Below are positions 44,474 through 54,180 of a stretch of 64,000 nt of DNA, in pieces. Each line of letters begins with the position of its first letter. The stretch's first letter is position 1. The notes below the pieces were generated by a model. It did no database searches and was not told the DNA's origin. It saw nothing but the letters and a program-made list of their open reading frames with translations. The stretch is from Demequina sediminicola (GTDB lineage: Bacteria; Actinomycetota; Actinomycetes; Actinomycetales; Demequinaceae), in NCBI RefSeq assembly GCF_000975055.1, contig NZ_BBRB01000004.1:1-64000 (forward strand), in the 5' to 3' direction. A program made the translations under genes and the position numbers.

Positions 44474-45349
44474 ATGAGGATGCGGCGCCGCTACAACGCG
44501 TACCCCGTCAGGCAGGCGATGCCGGAAGCCACGCCTTGGACATCTCCCCTTGGGTCTCCGCTGAGCCCGCGCCGATGGTGGCAGTGGCGGCGGTTCGCAT
44601 GGCCGGCACGCTACGCCGACCACGACGACGCCCCGGAGTACCCGATCGATCACGGTGAACAGGTGTGGCCACGCGTGGGCGAGCCAAGGCCGACGGTCGC
44701 AGGGTTGTGCGATCTGGATGCCGAGACGGTCACGCGCGTGTTCCTTCCCTTTGTGCTCAACGGCGACCCGGATGCTCCCGGCGTCGACGGGCGTCGCACC
44801 TGGGCTCGGATGCTCACGCCGCTCGGAGTGGACGTGAGCGCGGACCTCTCGCTGCGGGAGGAAGTCGCCTCCGGGCGAGTGCCTGAGGATGGCTTCGACG
44901 ATGCAGAGGGGAACTGGTACTGGCACGAGGGCGGCGTAGAGCCTCACACGTGGGGCGTGCTGTCGCGCGCGATCACCGATGCCGGACTGACCGATCAGAT
45001 CGACATCATCGGGTGGGCTGTGTACAACGAGAACGTGATCTGGGGAAACAACGGCGCGCGTTCAGTTCCCGCAAAAGATGGAGGCGTGTGGTGGGAAGAC
45101 GGTGCCCACCTCCGGATCCGCGACGCCAGGCTCGCGGACGTTGACCAGTTCGCGACGCACGACGCCACTCGCTTCCCCGTGGCACTCATTGCCGCTGACG
45201 GCTCGTACCTGGTCTCCGCGCCCGGGTACTCGGACTCGCTGTATGTCTCAGGGCCGATGCGTCTGGCTGAGTCCCTGCGCGAGCATGGCTTGGAGTGCGC
45301 GCCGGTGGACGTGGACTCGGAGGCCGTGCTGCCCTCGAGTCACGACTGA
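44474..45349 (+). CDS. Hypothetical protein
   Basis: 291 residues, no signal peptide or TM segment, rich in Trp and acidic residues. Segments such as TWGVLSRAITDAGLTDQIDIIGWAVYNENVIWGNN and LIAADGSYLVSAPGYSDSLYVSG look like a compact domain, but I recognise no family. TATAAC at 44460-44465 could be a -10 giving an almost leaderless mRNA. The spacer 44201-44473 upstream shows no other gene or tRNA. Confidence 0.6.
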   Translation: MRMRRRYNAYPVRQAMPEATPWTSPLGSPLSPRRWWQWRRFAWPARYADHDDAPEYPIDHGEQVWPRVGEPRPTVAGLCDLDAETVTRVFLPFVLNGDPDAPGVDGRRTWARMLTPLGVDVSADLSLREEVASGRVPEDGFDDAEGNWYWHEGGVEPHTWGVLSRAITDAGLTDQIDIIGWAVYNENVIWGNNGARSVPAKDGGVWWEDGAHLRIRDARLADVDQFATHDATRFPVALIAADGSYLVSAPGYSDSLYVSGPMRLAESLREHGLECAPVDVDSEAVLPSSHD

Positions 45350-45436: not shown

Positions 45437-45982
45437 ATGGATTGGCAAACGACCGCCCTCATCGCAACAGCAGCTTCGCCGGTCGTCGCGGCGATAATCT
45501 TCCTGAGTTCGGCGGTTGCTGACGCGCACCGGAGGCGACAAGACCAGTTGCGCGCAGCAATAGTAAACGCACGTACACAACTCTATGTCGCTGCCAAGCG
45601 CGCGGCATTGCCTGGACCGTTCACTCTCATCATTGGATGGCAGCTCACGCTATTGGGCGCTGTCGCCGAACTTGGATTGACCGTGGACCGCCGGCGGTAT
45701 CGGCAACTATCCGTGTGGCTCGTTCAGGGCGCGAAGTGCTCCGCGGAACGCGAATCACGAGCAAGAATCGAGGTGCTGTCACAACTAGTTCAAGTAACGG
45801 CTCTCATGGGAAACGGTAGTAGAACGCAACTCGATGCAGCTCAGAGCTACGCCAAGACACACCCCTGGCCCCAGGATCGAACGGACGCTCCACGGCACAG
45901 CTTCTGGAACGGGACTGCTCGCTGGGCACTATCCATCATTGCGCTCGACGCTAGTTTGCGTCGCCCCACGGCCAAGACTTAG
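45437..45982 (+). CDS. Hypothetical membrane-anchored protein
   Basis: 181 residues. One N-terminal TM helix (ALIATAASPVVAAIIFLSSAV), then a basic, helical region with no recognisable motif. Codon use looks less GC-biased than neighbours, a possible sign of transfer. 87 bp after the preceding hypothetical gene. Ends just before a strong bidirectional terminator. Confidence 0.55.
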   Translation: MDWQTTALIATAASPVVAAIIFLSSAVADAHRRRQDQLRAAIVNARTQLYVAAKRAALPGPFTLIIGWQLTLLGAVAELGLTVDRRRYRQLSVWLVQGAKCSAERESRARIEVLSQLVQVTALMGNGSRTQLDAAQSYAKTHPWPQDRTDAPRHSFWNGTARWALSIIALDASLRRPTAKT

Positions 45983-46055: not shown

Positions 46056-47564
46056 CTAGCGCGAGCGACGCCCGCCGCTGCGGGCCGCGGAGAAGTCAGC
46101 CGCGGAGCGGTTGCTACCCTGCGATGCGCGACCGCCGGAGCGGCTTCGGTTGCCGCCGCCCTGTCCCGGCTTGGACGAACCGTGGCCGGCGTCGTTGCGG
46201 TGACCGTTTGCAGTCGCGGAGCGGCCTTCACCGTTACCGCGTGCACCCTGGCCACGTGCGCGTCCGCGCCCACCACCGTTGCGGTTGCCGGGCTGTCCGC
46301 CGCCGTTGCGGTTGCGACCGCGACCGTTGCCGCGACCGGCACCCTGCTGCTGCTTGGGAGCCTCGGGAGAGGGCTTCACGTAAGGCGCAACCTCACCGAT
46401 GAGGTCGATGACCTGCTTGGAGGTCGCGTTGACTGCCTCAGGGCTCACGATGATCTTTGCGCGGCGCAGCAGCTGGTCTGCGTCGCGGCGCTGTTCGGGC
46501 AGAACGATGGTCACGACGTCACCGGCGGAACCAGCACGAGCAGTACGACCCGAACGGTGCAGGTATGCCTTGTGTTCGGCCGGCGGGTCGACGTGAATGA
46601 CGAGCTCGATGCCGTCAACGTGGACACCGCGTGCGGCGACGTCAGTAGCAACCAGGACCTTGACTTCACCGGAGGCAAACGCAGCGAGGTTACGGTCGCG
46701 GGCGTTCTGTGACAGGTTGCCGTGCAGGTCAACCGCGGGGATTCCGTCGGACGTGAGCTGCTTGGCAAGACGCTTCGCGTGGTGCTTGGTGCGCATGAAG
46801 AGGATGCGACGCCCGGTACCTGATGCCAGGGCGCGGACGACCTCCTTCTTGGCTTCAGCATCGGCTACCCGGAACACGTGGTGTGTCATGGCCTCGACAG
46901 GGCTTTCAGCGCTGTCGACACTGTGCGTGGTGGGATTGTCGAGGAAGCGCTTGACGAGCTTGTCGACGCCATTGTCCAGTGTCGCGGAGAACAGGAGGCG
47001 CTGCCCCTTGGATGGGGTGGCGTTCATGATGCGGGTAACACCGGGCAGGAAGCCGAGGTCTGCCATGTGGTCGGCCTCATCGAGCACGGTGATCTCGATG
47101 GCATCGAGAGAGACGATGCGCTGCTTCATCAGGTCTTCGAGACGGCCCGGGCAAGCCACAACGATATCGACGCCCTGCGCCATGGCGCGCTGCTGGCGAG
47201 ACTGGTTGACGCCACCAAAGATAGTGGTGGTCTTCATGCCATAGGCAGCGGCGAGCGGCGCCAGCACAGCATCGATCTGGGTTGCGAGCTCGCGAGTGGG
47301 CGCCAAGACGAGCGCGCGAGGGCGTCCAGGCTGGGCCTTGCCGCCCTTGGTGTTGAACGTGGTGGAGCCGAGGCGGGCGACGATGGGCAGCGAGAAGGCG
47401 AGGGTCTTGCCGGAGCCAGTCTTGCCGCGACCGAGGACGTCACGCCCTGCGAGGGTGTCCGGCAGTGTGTCTGCCTGGATGGGGAATGCGTTGGTTTTGC
47501 CTTCGCGCTCAAGAACTGAGGTGAGTGCGGTTGGCACGCCGAGATCGGCGAAAGAGGTACTCAT
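46056..47564 (-). CDS. DEAD-box RNA helicase
   Basis: 502 residues. Q-motif region FADLGVPTALTSVLEREGKTNAFPIQ, Walker A GKTGSGKT, PTREL, DEAD (VLDEADHMAD), SAT and HRSGRTAR are all present, so a functional ATP-dependent RNA unwinding enzyme (RhlE/CsdA-like). The C-terminal 90 residues are an Arg/Gly/Asn-rich RNA-binding tail. ATG at 47564. The long upstream region (about 270 bases) may be a 5' leader, as for cold-shock helicases; no motif identified. Confidence 0.93.
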   Translation of the reverse strand: MSTSFADLGVPTALTSVLEREGKTNAFPIQADTLPDTLAGRDVLGRGKTGSGKTLAFSLPIVARLGSTTFNTKGGKAQPGRPRALVLAPTRELATQIDAVLAPLAAAYGMKTTTIFGGVNQSRQQRAMAQGVDIVVACPGRLEDLMKQRIVSLDAIEITVLDEADHMADLGFLPGVTRIMNATPSKGQRLLFSATLDNGVDKLVKRFLDNPTTHSVDSAESPVEAMTHHVFRVADAEAKKEVVRALASGTGRRILFMRTKHHAKRLAKQLTSDGIPAVDLHGNLSQNARDRNLAAFASGEVKVLVATDVAARGVHVDGIELVIHVDPPAEHKAYLHRSGRTARAGSAGDVVTIVLPEQRRDADQLLRRAKIIVSPEAVNATSKQVIDLIGEVAPYVKPSPEAPKQQQGAGRGNGRGRNRNGGGQPGNRNGGGRGRARGQGARGNGEGRSATANGHRNDAGHGSSKPGQGGGNRSRSGGRASQGSNRSAADFSAARSGGRRSR

Positions 47565-47838
47565 ACGTGTGGTGTTGCCTTTCGGGCAAGGTGCCGGACG
47601 CGTCACTGAGCGTCAGTAGCGCGTGTTGTCCGTGGAAGTCACGGCACCGGCAGTGGTGGCGAAGCGCGAAGGTGTCCGCGTTCGTTCGCCGAAGAGAGGA
47701 TTTCTACGAGCCGCGCATGTCGGGGACGGGCGCTGGCGAGAAGGAGAAGCAATCTGCGACGCGTGCCCACCTACGATCTGGCTGGGGCACAGATACAAGA
47801 GTACCAGGTGCGATCGCGGGGGGTGGGAGCACCTAGTT
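47565..47838. other. Spacer between the DEAD helicase and the DRT ncRNA region
   Basis: No convincing gene, tRNA or repeat was seen in this stretch. It should hold the helicase promoter and a long 5' leader (minus strand). Short open frames in it look like chance. Confidence 0.5.
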
Positions 47839-47886
47839 CGCGGCACTCTTGCTTCGCCTGTTTAAAGTCGAAGCAAGAGTGCCGCG
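47839..47886 (-). repeat. 18-bp perfect inverted repeat
   Basis: CGCGGCACTCTTGCTTCG (47839-47856) and its exact complement at 47869-47886 flank a 12-base loop (CCTGTTTAAAGT on the plus strand). Far stronger than the other hairpins in the window. No U-tract, so either a terminator of an unusual kind or a structural element of the candidate ncRNA. Confidence 0.85.
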
Positions 47887-47969
47887 TCCCAGGAACGTGG
47901 CTTCCGCGTCAGCCGGTGCCCGTGCGCTGGTGTGTACTTGCCGCAAGACGCAACAAGTGATGCGGGCGC
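47839..47969 (-). ncRNA. Candidate DRT3-associated ncRNA
   Basis: A 131-base segment directly after the second RT stop, same strand. TATACT at 47981..47976, overlapping the last codons of that RT, is a strong -10 (no good -35). Then comes a small hairpin (47957..47937, CTTG/CAAG outer stem), then ACACAC at 47935..47930 just outside it, and the segment ends in an 18-bp perfect stem-loop (47886..47839). DRT3 systems are reported to carry an ncRNA; an ACACAC template feature has been reported in recent work as I recall it. The boundaries are my inference. Confidence 0.5.
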
Positions 47970-47973
47970 GCCT

Positions 47974-50019
47974 TCAGTATATGTCCCTGACGCGTTTCCG
48001 CAGGAGCCGCTCGTGAAGGTCAATCTGTCCCCACTCAACGAACCAATTGGACGCGACGCCCGCGGCGACGCTTACATCGCTCATTTTGGTTTGCGGGCTG
48101 AATGAACGTGCAACCTTCAGTTTGGTGGCTTCGCCCACGAAAGGCGACGCCAGGAGGCCGAGCGCGAAGAAGGTGACCGAGGCATCGGGAACATCGTCGT
48201 GCTCCCTCGCCTGCACTTTAGCGAGTGCATGGTCTGCGAGCGCACGGTGTGCCCATGCCAGGTCCGTGGACCTGGAGGCGACCCGCATCAACTCGAACAC
48301 CACTAGTGGATTGAACCAAGTAGGCACCTGGGGTCGTGCATCGCGCCGAACCCCAACTGCGCGAAGGGCACGCTCCGCCAGTCGAGTGTCGACCCAAGCG
48401 TCAGCCATCAGATCAAGAAAGAAGAGCGACTCGATCGAATTGTCTTCCGTCAACTCGAACCTTTCCATCGTCGCTATACACGCCTCTGCGATGCGGGTAT
48501 CCAGTTCGCGACGATTCGCGCGGAAAGGCACTAGCACCGCACACGCCTTCCTCACTTCCGCGAGCGAACGAACGACCTTGACAGCGTTTGCCACGCGAGG
48601 CGCCAGATCGTAGAGCCAGAAGTAGAGCTCGACTAGGTCAGAAAGGTTGCGGGTGAGTTCCACGCCCACGTTGGCAGGCAGAGCAGAGTATCTATCTACG
48701 TACGTTAGTAGTTCGGAAAGGACGCCAGATGCACGCTCCTCAAGCAGTGAGACCGCGTAAGAGGCGAGGGGGCCTGCTACGTCAGTCGACTGGGAGATGA
48801 CACCGGAAATCTCCTGCCGGATTCTGTTCGTCCGGGCCACGACCCGCCCCACCGTGCGGTGGTTGCCGGTTTCTTCGCGATACTCGACATAGAGGTTCTC
48901 ACCCACGATCGTGCGCACCGCTGCACGCGAGGAATCCAGTTGATTCAGACGTGGAGTGGCCGAGAGATCGCTCTTGTCATGATTCAAGTAGAGACGGTAC
49001 GAGCTCAGCACTCGATCCACCGCAGATTGAACTCGATGCGCTACTTCTTCAGTTGACGCGAATGCAAAGTAGTCGTCGACATACCGAAGGATCTCGAAAT
49101 CATCGCCCCTTGACAGTCCTGACGCGCGCAACGCATCTTCAATCTCGCGATCTGCAGACTGGAACACAACCTCTGCGAACAGTCTTGAAAACTCCGGCCC
49201 AATCAGTAGACCGCGGGTCTCAAGATCGTTCATGGACTGCATGGTCCGATCCATTCGGTCCCCCAGTGAGCCCTGGTAGCGCGAAATACTCGTTGATTTT
49301 CGCTTGACTCGCTCACGACCGTCATATGCCCACGACGCACTATGTGTGTAGAAGCTCTCGAAGCACCGTTCAACGTCGAGGGCGAGCACGTACGGAAACT
49401 TCCGCTCGAGACGCCGAAACTTGGCGGAGCTAAAGAGCTTGAAGATGAATCGGTGCTCGCGGTAGCGGTAGTACGAGGTTAGGAACTCGTACTCCCTCGC
49501 GTCAGACTCAACACCGTGGCGTGCTTTGTCCTCGAACCGGCTAAATATTGAGTCCCGCACCGAGACTACGGATGCTCGACGAACCGGCGTTCTCACCGAG
49601 AAGCTGGGGCGACGCAAATACTGAAGCATCGCGGGGCCATAGCGATCGTAGAAGTGCGCTACTGCAATCTGGGCGCCGGGGTGCGGTACAGACAACTCGC
49701 GGTATCCGTGCCTGTCGTGACGCACTCTGTACCGCAACGGCGAAGTCCGTTTCAGCGGTAGTTTGACGGACATGGGGTTGTCTCGTTGTTTCGTATCGAT
49801 GTGGGGCTCTTTGCCAAAAAGGATGCTGACAAGGAGGTAATTGACAGGGTCACGCGGACCCAGGTCGATGCCCGACGAAGTGAACTTCGCTCGACGACTA
49901 ATTAAGTACTCATAGAGACCCACGTTCGAGAACGAGACCGGGAGCTCGAAGGGCGTGGTCTCTGTGAGGATTGGTGTGAAAGGACTCCTTGCGAGACGCA
50001 GTCTCTTACTTCTCGCCAA
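47974..50019 (-). CDS. drt3b: Reverse transcriptase, Drt3b-like (UG8)
   Basis: About 681 residues. The catalytic aspartate is in LALDVERCF (D215 from this start) and YVDD (313-316), so the polymerase site is intact. No maturase or endonuclease domain. The C-terminal 300 residues are helical and of no known fold. Two adjacent, distinct RTs match DRT type 3. Start uncertain: the frame opens at GTG 50061, but the TTG at 50019 has GGAGG four bases upstream and overlaps drt3a by 14 bp. Base composition is lower than the neighbours (two 60-base lines counted at 50% and 55% GC), suggesting transfer. Confidence 0.8.
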   Translation of the reverse strand: MARSKRLRLARSPFTPILTETTPFELPVSFSNVGLYEYLISRRAKFTSSGIDLGPRDPVNYLLVSILFGKEPHIDTKQRDNPMSVKLPLKRTSPLRYRVRHDRHGYRELSVPHPGAQIAVAHFYDRYGPAMLQYLRRPSFSVRTPVRRASVVSVRDSIFSRFEDKARHGVESDAREYEFLTSYYRYREHRFIFKLFSSAKFRRLERKFPYVLALDVERCFESFYTHSASWAYDGRERVKRKSTSISRYQGSLGDRMDRTMQSMNDLETRGLLIGPEFSRLFAEVVFQSADREIEDALRASGLSRGDDFEILRYVDDYFAFASTEEVAHRVQSAVDRVLSSYRLYLNHDKSDLSATPRLNQLDSSRAAVRTIVGENLYVEYREETGNHRTVGRVVARTNRIRQEISGVISQSTDVAGPLASYAVSLLEERASGVLSELLTYVDRYSALPANVGVELTRNLSDLVELYFWLYDLAPRVANAVKVVRSLAEVRKACAVLVPFRANRRELDTRIAEACIATMERFELTEDNSIESLFFLDLMADAWVDTRLAERALRAVGVRRDARPQVPTWFNPLVVFELMRVASRSTDLAWAHRALADHALAKVQAREHDDVPDASVTFFALGLLASPFVGEATKLKVARSFSPQTKMSDVSVAAGVASNWFVEWGQIDLHERLLRKRVRDIY

Positions 50020-51364
50020 GGTTCCTCCAAATGTAAGACAGCCTCTGAATACGCTTTGCACTCACCTTGACGAACCTCACATCGTCGATCCCACTAGAAA
50101 AAGACAGCGGTTCGAGCCGCGCAATGAGCGCCCGGTCAGACGAGATGGAAGCGATCTCGAGCGCGAGGTTGCGATCAAGCTCGCGAACAGACCTGCTAGT
50201 GGATCCGACCAACGGGCTCGCGAACGCCAAACCCACGTAACTGCGAGCCTTGCGCCCGCTTAGTCGGTAGTTTGACGTGACGAGCTCTATCCGCTGCACA
50301 AGTTGATTTCCGTCCGCGTCAGTCCGCGAACTCGATCGGAACGCGTCGAAGGCACGCGTGACTCTCGTCGATAGACGCCGAATCTTCTTCTCAGATAGTT
50401 CGGCCGTAACACTGTTGGACCTCAACTCAAAGCGGTACCCCAAGTACTCTATTGACCGCACCCGCGACGACTTGGATAGCGGGAGTTCTAGTGCGAGCGA
50501 CTTTTCAGGATTCGCCTTAAGGCCTAGTTCCTCTATCGCCGACACAACCTGGCGCCTCCGGTCTTGAGGTCGAGACTTGGGCCCACCCGCACCGAAAACT
50601 ACAACCACATCGTCGACATACCGGAAGTACTGCACCACGTCAAGGTCGCGACCGATACTCTGGTCGAGTTCGGCGAGCACCAGCTCTCCGAGGAACGCCG
50701 AGAGGGCGACGCCACGCGGGAGTCCCACCCGCGCCCCGGCGGTCTGTGTGAAACTGCGGAGTAGAGCGGATACATGGTCAGCCGCGGTCGGCGAGAGGTC
50801 CGGACGGTTCTTCACAACCTCAACCAGCATCTCGTGGCTGACGCTCTCATAGAAGGCCTGGACATCCGTCTTGACGACCACTTTGGGACTCGGCTCTTCC
50901 AAAGTCGAAAAAAGGGCCGCGCAAAGCGCGGTGCGATCTACGCCTTGGGGTGAGAGATTTCCGCGGAGGTCGGTCTCGACTACAAAGCGCGCGAGCAGGT
51001 GGGCGCGGTCGGTGTCCTTGAGACGATAAGTCGCCGCCGGCGACACCAAGCCACGAACAGGCACCAACTCCCACAAGGACTGGGGCTCGTCCACGAGATC
51101 TAGCACATTCGGTAGATCGAGCTCCAATAGCGCTACTACTTCTTCACGAACCTCTTTGCGAAGATTGGCTATCTCTATCGTGAGCCGGTTCGCCATGGCC
51201 CAATCCGACGTGCGCCGCGCCGCTCGCCGCGCTCTTGCAACAGTTGTGATCTGGCTTTGCAGTGCGTCGAGCTCCGGGAAAACCTCAACAAATGGCCGAC
51301 CTTGCCGATCGAACTGATCGACTGCACGTAGTAGCCACTTGGCATCAATGTGCGCGGAAGACAC
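50006..51364 (-). CDS. drt3a: Reverse transcriptase, Drt3a-like (UG3)
   Basis: 452 residues with RT motifs: catalytic D167 in KTDVQAFYESV, GLPRGVALSAF (214-224), YVDD (249-252), LGLKANPEKS and EYLGYRF. Both polymerase aspartates are present. An N-terminal helical region of about 100 residues precedes the RT core. It lacks group II intron maturase features, and there is no msr/msd, so retron is unlikely. The size and pairing with the larger RT match DRT3. GTG start at 51364 with a G-rich ribosome site that includes a run of nine G. First gene of the unit. Confidence 0.82.
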   Translation of the reverse strand: MSSAHIDAKWLLRAVDQFDRQGRPFVEVFPELDALQSQITTVARARRAARRTSDWAMANRLTIEIANLRKEVREEVVALLELDLPNVLDLVDEPQSLWELVPVRGLVSPAATYRLKDTDRAHLLARFVVETDLRGNLSPQGVDRTALCAALFSTLEEPSPKVVVKTDVQAFYESVSHEMLVEVVKNRPDLSPTAADHVSALLRSFTQTAGARVGLPRGVALSAFLGELVLAELDQSIGRDLDVVQYFRYVDDVVVVFGAGGPKSRPQDRRRQVVSAIEELGLKANPEKSLALELPLSKSSRVRSIEYLGYRFELRSNSVTAELSEKKIRRLSTRVTRAFDAFRSSSRTDADGNQLVQRIELVTSNYRLSGRKARSYVGLAFASPLVGSTSRSVRELDRNLALEIASISSDRALIARLEPLSFSSGIDDVRFVKVSAKRIQRLSYIWRNLGEK

Positions 51365-51555: not shown

Positions 51556-54180
51556 TCAACGCAAGAAGGCTTCGCACTTTTCAGCAGCCGCCGCGATGAT
51601 CGCCTCGCGCACCGCGAGCACCTCGTCTCCGGACAGCGTGTGGTCGGCCGCACGCAGGCGCACATTCACGGCTAGGGACTTCTTGCCCTCACCGATCTGT
51701 TCGCCTTCATAGACGTCGAACACTCGTGCGTCCTCGACCACATCTCCCCCGGCGGCACGCACTGCACCAACTAGGTCGCCAGCGGCCACATCAGCAGCCA
51801 CGACGAAAGCGAAGTCCTCCTTCGCCACCACCTGCTGAGACACGGGGACAGCTTCGACGATGGTGCCGTCTCCTGCTGCAATCAGCGGGTCCAACACAAT
51901 CTCGAATGCCACGGAACGAGCTGGGAGACCGAGCGTCTCGCATACCTTCGGGTGCAGTTCGCCAGCATGAGCCACGAACTCCCCTGACTCCAACCAGTAG
52001 GTTGCGCCACGGCCCGGGTGCCACGGCATGCGCGAACCCTGCGTCACCACGAGTTCAATACCGGCGGCAGCGGCCACGCGCTCCACAGCCGCAAGGGAGT
52101 CGTCCCACGACCATACGGTGGCATGTCCGTTCCAGCCAGCACGGACCCGGTTGCCCGCCATGATGCCGGCAACGCGACGTTCCTGACCGGGCAACACTGC
52201 GTTCAGCGCAGCAATCTCATCGGGAGTGATGCGGCCGTCCGTGAGGTCTGCCACGTGCACATCGCCGATGTTCTTGCCCTGATAGGCGCGTCCCAGTTCA
52301 TAAACCGCGATGTCCTGCTCGCCGCGGCCCAGGTTCACCTTCACCGCATCGACGAGCGACGCGAGCATGGTGGTGCGCATGATCGGCAGTTCCGCGGACA
52401 GCGGGTTCGCGAGGCGGACGATGTCGCGGCGCGGGTCAACGTCGGGAATCCCGAGCTCGTCGAGACGGGACTCCGCAATGAACGGATACGTCAGGACCTC
52501 AGTCAGTCCGGACTCGGCTAGCGTACGAGCCACCGAGCGGCGCACGCGCTGGCCGTGAGTGAGACCACGTCCAGGGGGCGCAACCGGTAGTACGGATGGC
52601 AGGTTTTCGTAGCCGTACAGTCGTGCGACCTCTTCAACCAAGTTGACTGACTCAGTAAGGTCGGGGCGCCAGGTGGGCGGGGTCACGAGAAGCGACTCGT
52701 AGTCTCGGTCAACATCGCAGCCCACCTGTTCAAGGGCGGACACCACCTGGTCAGGCGTGTATTCGACACCCACGAGGTTGGACGGGAAGGCGATATCCAT
52801 CGCGATCTGACGCGGTGCCTCGACAGAGTTCAGATCCGTGTAGACATCCTCGATCTCACCGCCACCGAACTCCTGCATCAGCGACAGCGCGCGCTCCACG
52901 GCAACGACCTGCAACTGGGTGTCGACACCGCGCTCGAAGCGACGGGAGGCCTCAGAACCGAGCTTGTGACGGCGAGCAGTCCGAGCAATGGTGATCGGGT
53001 CAAAGTGAGCGGCCTCAAGAAGAATGTCCGTGGTCGCGTCCGAGACCTCGGTCTCCGCGCCACCCATGACGCCTGCCATGCCAACCGCACGCGCACCGTG
53101 ACCACCCTGCGAATCAGTGATCAGCAGGTCCTCGGGCGAAAGCGCGCGCTCAGCATCGTCAAGCGTCGTCAGCTTCTCGCCAGCGTTGGCGCGGCGCACC
53201 ACGATGGGCTCGGTCAGCGTGCCCAGGTCATAGGCGTGCAGGGGCTGCCCCAACTCGAGCATCACGTAGTTGGTGACGTCCACTGCCAACGAGATGGGTC
53301 GCATGCCAGCCTGGTCAAGACGGCGCTTCATCCATGCCGGCGATGCCGCTGTCGGGTCAAACCCACGTAGGCGGCGCGCGACGAACCGATCGCAACCGAC
53401 AGTCCCCCGCACCGGCGCCTGGTCCTCGACAGCAACAGCGAAACCCTCACCTGCAGAGCCGGTGACAGCAACATCGGCCGGGTCCCGGAAAACCTGACCG
53501 GTGGCGTGGCTGTACTCACGTGCAACACCACGAACAGAGAAGCTGTAGCCGCGGTCTGGGGTGACGTTGATCTCCAGGGTGGCCTCATCCAGTCCCAGGA
53601 GGGAGATGGCCGATGCGCCGGGCACCAAGTCGCCTTCGCTCACCAGACCTGGGAAGGTCACGTCTGACTCACCGGATGGAGACGCGAGCACGATGATGCC
53701 GTCGTGGTCCTCGCCGAGACCCAGTTCCTTGGACGAGCAGATCATGCCGTCGGACCAGTGACCGTAGGTCTTGCGGCCACCGATCTGGAAGTTTCCGGGC
53801 AGCACGCCGCCGGGCAGAATGCACACCACGAAGTCGCCCTCGTGGAAGTTGTGCGCGCCACAGACGATGCCCTTGGAGGCGGGGAACATCTCTTTGTGGT
53901 CGGGCTTGTGTCCCGGGACTAGGCCAGCGGGGTCCTCGTCTGAAATGTCGTTGTGCTCCCCCACGTCAACACGGCAGTAGTTCACCGTCTTACCGTTGGA
54001 GGCAACCTCCTTGGTGAGGGTCATCACCCGGCCAATGACGAGCGGGCCAGTCACGCCGCCGCCTTCGATGCCTTCTTCTTCAAGACCCACCGAGGACAGA
54101 GCCGCGGCAACATCCTCAGCACTGTGCCCGTCAACGAGGTCAACGGACTCTTCGAGCCACTTAAGCGGAATCTTGGGCAC
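51556..54180 (-). CDS. pheT: Phenylalanyl-tRNA synthetase beta subunit
   Basis: 874-residue beta chain, which carries the editing (B3/4) site and the C-terminal anticodon-binding (FDX-ACB) domain; works as alpha2beta2. EMAP-like tRNA-binding OB domain near 40-150, B5 domain (PRQIAMDIAFPSNLVG) and the C-terminal FDX-ACB segment (KEDFAFVVAADV). It starts with GTG directly after the pheS stop (TAAGTG), so coupled. Not frameshifted. In Mycobacterium and Streptomyces pheT is followed by argC; here the DRT3 locus follows. Confidence 0.97.
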   Translation of the reverse strand: MPKIPLKWLEESVDLVDGHSAEDVAAALSSVGLEEEGIEGGGVTGPLVIGRVMTLTKEVASNGKTVNYCRVDVGEHNDISDEDPAGLVPGHKPDHKEMFPASKGIVCGAHNFHEGDFVVCILPGGVLPGNFQIGGRKTYGHWSDGMICSSKELGLGEDHDGIIVLASPSGESDVTFPGLVSEGDLVPGASAISLLGLDEATLEINVTPDRGYSFSVRGVAREYSHATGQVFRDPADVAVTGSAGEGFAVAVEDQAPVRGTVGCDRFVARRLRGFDPTAASPAWMKRRLDQAGMRPISLAVDVTNYVMLELGQPLHAYDLGTLTEPIVVRRANAGEKLTTLDDAERALSPEDLLITDSQGGHGARAVGMAGVMGGAETEVSDATTDILLEAAHFDPITIARTARRHKLGSEASRRFERGVDTQLQVVAVERALSLMQEFGGGEIEDVYTDLNSVEAPRQIAMDIAFPSNLVGVEYTPDQVVSALEQVGCDVDRDYESLLVTPPTWRPDLTESVNLVEEVARLYGYENLPSVLPVAPPGRGLTHGQRVRRSVARTLAESGLTEVLTYPFIAESRLDELGIPDVDPRRDIVRLANPLSAELPIMRTTMLASLVDAVKVNLGRGEQDIAVYELGRAYQGKNIGDVHVADLTDGRITPDEIAALNAVLPGQERRVAGIMAGNRVRAGWNGHATVWSWDDSLAAVERVAAAAGIELVVTQGSRMPWHPGRGATYWLESGEFVAHAGELHPKVCETLGLPARSVAFEIVLDPLIAAGDGTIVEAVPVSQQVVAKEDFAFVVAADVAAGDLVGAVRAAGGDVVEDARVFDVYEGEQIGEGKKSLAVNVRLRAADHTLSGDEVLAVREAIIAAAAEKCEAFLR

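What the first reader, a model, noticed from the sequence alone, without database searches (positions are those of the whole stretch)
47839..51364. DRT type 3-like anti-phage system in the pheT-argC gap
Two distinct adjacent reverse transcriptases, 452 and about 681-695 residues, both with intact catalytic Asp and YVDD motifs, overlapping by about 14 bp, with no maturase domain and no retron msr/msd. Paired UG3 and UG8 RTs define DRT3 (Drt3a and Drt3b). GC content is visibly below that of the neighbours. It stands between housekeeping genes, with no integrase seen.
Basis: partly seen in the sequence, partly recalled or inferred. Interest (0 to 1): 0.9.

Follow-up and report, generated by a model that had tools for sequence, protein, structure and literature searches.

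The report
Two-polymerase anti-phage DRT3 system, actinobacterial
Two neighbouring bacterial polymerase genes, with an RNA-template motif beside them, carry the sequence hallmarks of a recently explained anti-virus system (DRT3) that makes repetitive double-stranded DNA, here from a divergent branch in an actinobacterium that seems to lack the nuclease known to restrain it in E. coli.

Summary
Window 47974-51364 (minus strand) encodes Drt3a (452 aa) and Drt3b (681 aa from a TTG; 14-bp overlap). Both score best to, and pass the curated cut-offs of, the Drt3a and Drt3b families. The residues that published work gives to Drt3b's protein-templated, protein-primed synthesis are present: E39, R121, R293, YVDD and a C-terminal Tyr. 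Such a repeat follows drt3b in 35 of 35 kept loci. The genes look constrained, and a sister genome has the empty site. So it most likely makes poly(GT)/poly(AC) duplex DNA and aborts infection. Beyond the known: it lies in one of two deep DRT3 clades, with a helical insert in Drt3a and a template close to drt3b; its host shows no RecC but an AdnA/AdnB-like pair. A covariance model did not recognise its RNA. New member of a known kind.

The parts
50006..51364 (-). drt3a: RNA-templated reverse transcriptase, 452 aa (GTG start); residues 24-72 are an insert found in one of two DRT3 clades, predicted as part of a long helical hairpin
   Evidence: NF041747 217.8 bits vs cut-off 200; PDLC03768 1.1e-72; insert mapped, AlphaFold2 model pLDDT 88 with helices 30-51 and 55-92
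47974..50019 (-). drt3b: inferred protein-primed, protein-templated polymerase, 681 aa from TTG (open frame to 50061, 695 aa); numbered on 695 aa: E39, R121, D229, R293, YVDD 327-330, C-terminal Tyr695
   Evidence: NF041748 396.3 bits vs cut-off 350; residues; TTG and GGAGG
50024..50028 (-). GGAGG, likely ribosome binding site of drt3b
   Evidence: read in the sequence
47930..47935 (-). ACACAC, inferred ncRNA template for poly(GT) synthesis by Drt3a
   Evidence: ACACAC or CACACA after drt3b in 35 of 35 kept DRT3 loci
47936..47958 (-). 9-bp hairpin directly 5' of the template (candidate template boundary, like stem-loop 4 of EcoDRT3)
   Evidence: kept in L024 with one G-U to A-U change; not significant on single-sequence folding
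47923..47970 (-). conserved core of the inferred ncRNA (2 differences in 48 columns from D. litorisediminis)
   Evidence: block chosen by eye
47838..47888 (-). long stem-loop downstream of the template (candidate 3' part of the ncRNA; no T-run follows)
   Evidence: Rfam gives only sub-threshold microRNA-model matches to the bare hairpin
51556..54180 (-). pheT, upstream neighbour (not part of the system)
   Evidence: present in 39 of 39 genomes searched
46056..47564 (-). DEAD-box helicase gene, downstream neighbour; adjacent to pheT in the empty-site genome
   Evidence: Pfam, synteny

Best explanation
It is a chromosomal DRT3 anti-phage system. Drt3a, bound to a short RNA transcribed from just after (perhaps overlapping the end of) drt3b, copies the ACACAC template over and over into poly(dTdG). 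Drt3b, a class 1 enzyme with a helical repeat domain, starts DNA on its own C-terminal tyrosine and, without a nucleic acid template, adds dA and dC in turn, with a Glu (E39) and an Arg (R293) beside the active site acting as gates, giving poly(dCdA). The strands anneal. The host's end-processing nuclease, here probably AdnAB since no RecC was found, keeps the duplex low; a phage that blocks that nuclease lets it build up and growth stops. Shown here: both families, the conserved active-site, gate and priming residues, the template motif and its conservation, constraint on the coding sequence, presence/absence between sister genomes. Inferred from the E. coli system: RNA, products, priming, duplex, abortive infection. 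Inferred only: AdnAB as the guard.
For: Family scores over curated cut-offs for both proteins; best PDB sequence matches are the Drt3a and Drt3b chains of 9z6y. The residues assigned to the E. coli mechanism in PMC13174585 are present; in 35 kept loci: R241-equivalent 35 of 35, E22-equivalent E in 29 and D in 6, R71-equivalent 34, a Tyr within the last four residues 35. ACACAC within 400 nt after drt3b in 34 of 35, CACACA in the other; in an earlier set with near-copies, 30 of 30 within 300 nt against a shuffle mean of 1.6, maximum 5. Noncoding core 46 of 48 identical to L024, where third codon positions of drt3b differ at 262 of 587 codons (binomial 4e-10, overstated because the block was picked by eye). 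Differences from L024 by codon position: drt3b 60/32/262, drt3a 48/34/139, helicase 46/30/173. UG3 and UG8 RTs are known to be neighbours (97% and 90% of cases; passages of PMC8934634). The Drt3b model's nearest folds are DRT4, DRT6, UG15 and AbiK; the Drt3a model's top Foldseek match is ncRNA-using DRT9.
Against: Nothing was tested in cells. The window's proteins sit on long branches (1.84 and 2.49 changes per site; at most 29% identity to the other 34 loci in the trees). A covariance model from four related loci gives the right place only 6.3 bits, eleventh in the region and not above background. Single-sequence folding of the 40 nt before the template is not unusual (z -0.6), and ACACAC alone arises in about 12% of shuffles of this 140-nt stretch; the window holds 18 copies on both strands. 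By VIA-align the Drt3a model is closest to group II intron and DGR RTs (Z 19) before DRT9 (Z 15.9). The known restraint, RecBCD, appears to be missing. One dual-RT viral locus, L116, has neither ACACAC nor a C-terminal Tyr and was left out of the counts.
Confidence: 0.88

Rival explanations
1. A DRT3 homologue whose specificity has drifted: Drt3a still copies an RNA repeat but Drt3b makes another sequence or a random one, as class 1 relatives such as DRT4 are reported to do.
For: Very long branches of the window's proteins; six of 35 relatives carry Asp at the Glu gate, so the gate can vary.
Against: In the window itself the gate residues are the E. coli ones and the RNA motif still encodes the complement of (CA)n.
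Confidence: 0.07
2. A decaying remnant, no longer working.
For: In L024 both RT genes are broken by frame changes.
Against: In the window both frames are intact over 452 and 681 codons with the catalytic motifs; divergence from L024 is concentrated at third positions as in the helicase; in L024 the helicase next door is broken in the same way, which points to indel errors in that assembly.
Confidence: 0.04
3. A retron, a group II intron RT pair or another non-defence retroelement.
For: RVT_1 domain in both; structural likeness of Drt3a to group II intron RTs.
Against: Retron St85 model 37.1 bits vs cut-off 235, group II RT/maturase 69.9 vs 300 for Drt3a; no maturase domain; Drt3 families score far better.
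Confidence: 0.01

Closest known systems
EcoDRT3 (PMC13174585), inferred from its 667 aa and residue numbers to be the L077/L078 kind in E. coli
   Same: Gene order, both RT families, YVDD, E/R gates, C-terminal Tyr, ACACAC after drt3b
   Different: Its Drt3a lacks the insert (N-terminal motif to catalytic Asp 112 aa vs 165 aa); template 129 nt after the stop vs 39 nt; it was studied in a host with RecBCD, while no RecC was found in the window's genome
E. coli GYB01 drt3 (L075) and viral-contig loci L079, L080, L081, L083
   Same: Same clade as the window: Drt3a insert, short distance to the template; L075 shares the 12-nt string ACACACCAGCGC with the window
   Different: E. coli or viral contigs; Drt3b identity to the window 25-27% for the viral-contig four and 23% for L028, a copy of L075's gene; model R1, built from four loci of this kind, does not recognise the window
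Drt3a/Drt3b of PDB 9z6y and Drt3b of 26cz
   Same: Best sequence matches among solved structures: 9z6y_A over window residues 140-445, 9z6y_H over 105-694, 26cz_A over 105-385
   Different: Inferred to belong to the other clade: the 9z6y Drt3a has its catalytic Asp near residue 115 (alignment) and its Drt3b end resembles L082; 26cz fits the EcoDRT3b numbering
DRT4, DRT6, UG15, AbiK
   Same: Fold of Drt3b
   Different: Single-RT systems as described; the Drt6 and Drt4 models match the window's Drt3b far less well than Drt3b's own

Membership tests
DRT3 | UG3-type Drt3a over the curated cut-off | tested here: met
   217.8 bits vs 200
DRT3 | UG8-type Drt3b over the curated cut-off | tested here: met
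   396.3 bits vs 350
DRT3 | drt3a directly followed by drt3b on one strand | tested here: met
   14-bp overlap
DRT3 | Intact catalytic Asp and YxDD in both RTs | tested here: met
DRT3 | ACACAC template motif downstream of drt3b | tested here: met
   47930-47935, conserved in L024; transcription not tested
DRT3 | Folded ncRNA of the known architecture | tested here: inconclusive
   Rfam has no such match; R1 model 6.3 bits; hairpin next to template kept in L024
DRT3 | Drt3b residues E22, R71, R241 | tested here: met
   E39, R121, R293
DRT3 | C-terminal priming tyrosine of Drt3b | tested here: met
   Tyr695 is the last residue; priming itself not tested
DRT3 | Helical repeat (alphaRep) domain after the RT domain of Drt3b | tested here: met
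   model (pLDDT 75) almost wholly helical from 411 to 693; nearest folds DRT4, DRT6, UG15, AbiK
DRT3 | poly(TG)/poly(CA) products and phage defence | not testable with these tools
   needs experiment
RecBCD-guarded DRT3 (E. coli regulatory model, not a defining feature of DRT3) | Host RecBCD | tested here: not met
   No RecC match in G000, while the control search rings in E. coli; AdnA/AdnB-like pair instead
Group II intron RT | Group II RT/maturase model over its cut-off, maturase domain | tested here: not met
   69.9 and 38.8 bits vs 300; no maturase domain
Retron | Retron RT model over its cut-off | tested here: not met
   37.1 and 12.7 bits vs 235 for the St85 model, the only retron model listed

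The most novel reading that the evidence does not exclude
DRT3 comes in two architectures. In the one the window belongs to, a helical hairpin in Drt3a goes with a compact ncRNA whose template lies 25-79 nt after drt3b; in the one studied in E. coli, Drt3a is shorter and stem-loops precede a template 102-262 nt away. Protein may thus have taken over a scaffolding job of RNA (or the reverse), and in actinobacteria the guard that the phage must trip is AdnAB, not RecBCD.
Probability: 0.45. Interest if true: 0.65.

Novelty: new member of a known kind. Interest (0 to 1): 0.5.

Why it matters
DRT3 is one of the few known cases of DNA made on a protein template. Finding its sequence hallmarks in an actinobacterium with at most 29% identity to the other 34 loci compared (its near relative L024 was not among them) shows how deeply the chemistry is conserved. 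The clade split gives a natural experiment on which RNA parts Drt3a really needs. And six actinobacterial carriers (two of them with Drt3b below the family cut-off) without a full-score RecC, each with an AdnA-like protein, make the question 'what does DRT3 guard?' testable outside E. coli.

Tried and rejected
Rfam at E up to 5 gave only sub-threshold microRNA-model matches to the bare hairpin: taken as chance. A covariance model (R1) from L075, L076, L080 and L083, run over 36 sources at E up to 10, found its four seeds, L025 (E 0.089), L079 (E 1.9) and one place inside a gene of L080 (E 6.3), not the window: rejected as a detector at this distance. Hairpin z-scores before the template averaged about -0.8 in both sets (15 and 20 loci): weak, not used as evidence. 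An idea that gate changes go with different templates was looked at: the six loci with Asp for Glu still have ACACAC, so no sign of it. The link between insert and template distance rests on one split, in the Drt3b tree (SH-aLRT 100) and the Drt3a tree (62); the two sets were named from these features before the trees were built, and the trees carry long-branch warnings. It is a single event and no proof of functional linkage. DRT3 entries do not appear in the fold-search lists, but that library ends in April 2026.

Rows left out before the 35-locus counts: L024 and L028 (broken frames); L078 and L093 (kin of L077), L084 and L086 (kin of L082), which conform; L097 and L098 (partial, conform where present); L091, L095, L101-L106, L115 (contigs fetched twice); L112-L114 (incomplete frames); L099 (no match to the motif filter); and L116, which lacks both ACACAC and the C-terminal Tyr and so speaks against universality among Drt3b-like proteins. 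L076, a close relative of L075, was kept. The sub-cut-off hits were not examined, save L119 and L120.

Not read: Deng et al. 2026 (Science) and Mestre et al. 2022 (not held), so whether the two clades or actinobacterial DRT3 are already in print is open. Searches: 'DRT3' with 'actinobacteria' 0 papers; 'Drt3a' with 'Drt3b' 4; 'DRT3' with 'reverse transcriptase' 9.
Full report
WHAT IS THERE. On the minus strand, 50006-51364 encodes a 452-aa reverse transcriptase and 47974-50061 an open frame of 695 aa. GC is 58.0% against 62.6% for the rest of the window, lower than any of 1077 same-length windows elsewhere in it. The flanks are pheT and a DEAD-box helicase gene. argC is 33 kb off.

WHAT IT IS. 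Both proteins score best to DRT3 families in PADLOC and pass the NCBIfam equivalog cut-offs: Drt3a 217.8 vs 200, Drt3b 396.3 vs 350. In the Protein Data Bank their best sequence matches are the Drt3a and Drt3b chains of 9z6y (9.4e-15 and 1.2e-49). The genus is inferred to be Demequina from L024, D. litorisediminis (81% identity in the best segment).

THE MECHANISM RESIDUES. From the preprint PMC13174585 I read the outline, the first three of thirteen parts, the discussion, two method sections and the first of two parts of the figure legends, and passages; of the review PMC13314766 passages; of PMC8934634 passages. The preprint reports that Drt3a copies ACACAC in an ncRNA downstream of drt3b into poly(dTdG), and that Drt3b makes poly(dCdA) from its C-terminal Y666 with E22, R71 and R241 as selecting residues. 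I tied the numbering to the window through 26cz and L077. In the window these are E39, R121, R293, YVDD 327-330 and Tyr695. Across 35 kept loci: R241-equivalent 35, D182 35, F187 35, both YxDD aspartates 35, R71 34, E22 as E 29 or D 6, Tyr within the last four residues 35.

THE RNA. ACACAC lies at 47930-47935, 39 nt after the stop. By itself that is weak: about 12% of shuffles of this stretch contain it, and the window has 18 copies on its two strands. Comparison makes it strong: 34 of 35 kept loci have ACACAC within 400 nt of the drt3b stop and the other has CACACA; in an earlier set of 30 that included near-copies, 30 had it within 300 nt against a shuffle mean of 1.6. The window and L024 differ at 2 of 48 columns over the core, a block picked by eye, although drt3b third positions differ at 262 of 587 codons. 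A 9-bp hairpin ends directly before the template in both. In some pairs of loci, the window and L024 among them, conservation also rises over the last 60-90 nt of drt3b, so the RNA may begin inside the gene. Against: the R1 covariance model does not find it (6.3 bits), Rfam has nothing, and single-sequence folding is unremarkable.

SELECTION AND MOBILITY. Codon-position differences from L024 are 60/32/262 in drt3b (587 of 695 codons compared) and 48/34/139 in drt3a (319 of 452), like the neighbouring helicase (46/30/173, 416 of 502); stretches under 55% local identity were excluded. In L024 the RT genes and the helicase are all frame-broken, which suggests assembly indels. Drt3b over the cut-off was found in 2 of 59 genomes in the relatives search, the window's own included, in 1 of 396 drawn across the phylum, which is the window's own, and in 4 of 396 of the order, own included. 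In G009, a sister with 88% identical PheT, helicase and pheT are adjacent with no drt3, and homology to the window resumes near 47768. In L024 drt3 is followed by the same helicase, but pheT was not found in the 2.7 kb held upstream of drt3a.

TWO CLADES. The distance from the N-terminal motif, placed by eye, to the catalytic Asp of Drt3a is 165-180 aa in the window and ten other loci, and 111-113 aa in fourteen. In ten more the motif was not placed; nine have open-frame lengths before the Asp that fit one class or the other (115-128 or 170-202), and L090 (163) has a longer open frame than its close kin L109 (122). The template lies 25-79 nt after the stop in 15 loci and 102-262 nt in 20. The Drt3b tree separates the two sets with SH-aLRT 100; the Drt3a tree does so with 62 (quick method, long-branch warnings). 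The insert is residues 24-72 of the window's Drt3a, modelled as part of two long helices, 30-51 and 55-92, with block pLDDT of 91-97. E. coli has both kinds: L075/L076 and L077. Stem-loops before the template appear in minimum-energy folds of the second set. This is a single split, so it is a correlation with one event behind it.

HOST GUARD. PMC13174585 reports that RecBCD restrains DRT3 and that the system cannot be kept in RecBCD mutants. The window's genome has no RecC match, while the control search rings in E. coli. It has two adjacent genes, 1094 and 1061 aa, each with UvrD-like helicase and PDDEXK nuclease domains; the 1061-aa protein best matches chains 7sjr_A, 9np6_A and 6ppj_A (3.7e-94 to 5.2e-93), which I recall to be mycobacterial AdnAB. 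That AdnAB is one of three classes of such helicase-nucleases is from the abstract of PMC5030088 as shown in a listing. Of five other actinobacterial carriers of Drt3b-like genes (three over and two under the family cut-off), none has RecC over the cut-off (one has an 18-bit match), and six of six including the window's have an AdnA-like protein. That AdnAB plays RecBCD's part is inference.

VERDICT. Its core is already explained in E. coli; what is added here is its ncRNA template motif, its membership of a divergent clade with a different Drt3a and RNA layout, and a host with a different candidate guard.

Noticed in passing
L070 7867-11159; L066 8937-10139; window 47974-51364: The stretch next to pheT holds different defence-like cargo in different genomes of the genus: drt3 here, a DNA-methylase-like plus restriction-like ATPase pair in G013, a GmrSD-type gene in G014, nothing in G009 (eight stretches fetched, not all identified). 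It may be an insertion hot spot.
   Followed up: partly
L024 2698-8085: In D. litorisediminis drt3a, drt3b and the conserved helicase are all broken by frame changes, probably indel errors of the assembly.
   Followed up: partly
L028 3456-5499 and L075 2843-4885: An E. coli IncY plasmid record has drt3b annotated as two pieces where nearly identical chromosomal copies are annotated whole.
   Followed up: no
L116 2420-6007: A viral contig with two adjacent Drt3-like RT genes but no ACACAC within 400 nt and no C-terminal Tyr: possibly another dual-RT variant.
   Followed up: no
L119, L120: Two actinobacterial Drt3b-like proteins below the family cut-off (315 and 308 bits) keep the gates and the C-terminal Tyr and have CACACA or ACACACA after the gene.
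   Followed up: partly
window 44474-45349 and 45437-45982: Two plus-strand ORFs downstream of the helicase with no Pfam or PADLOC match.
   Followed up: no
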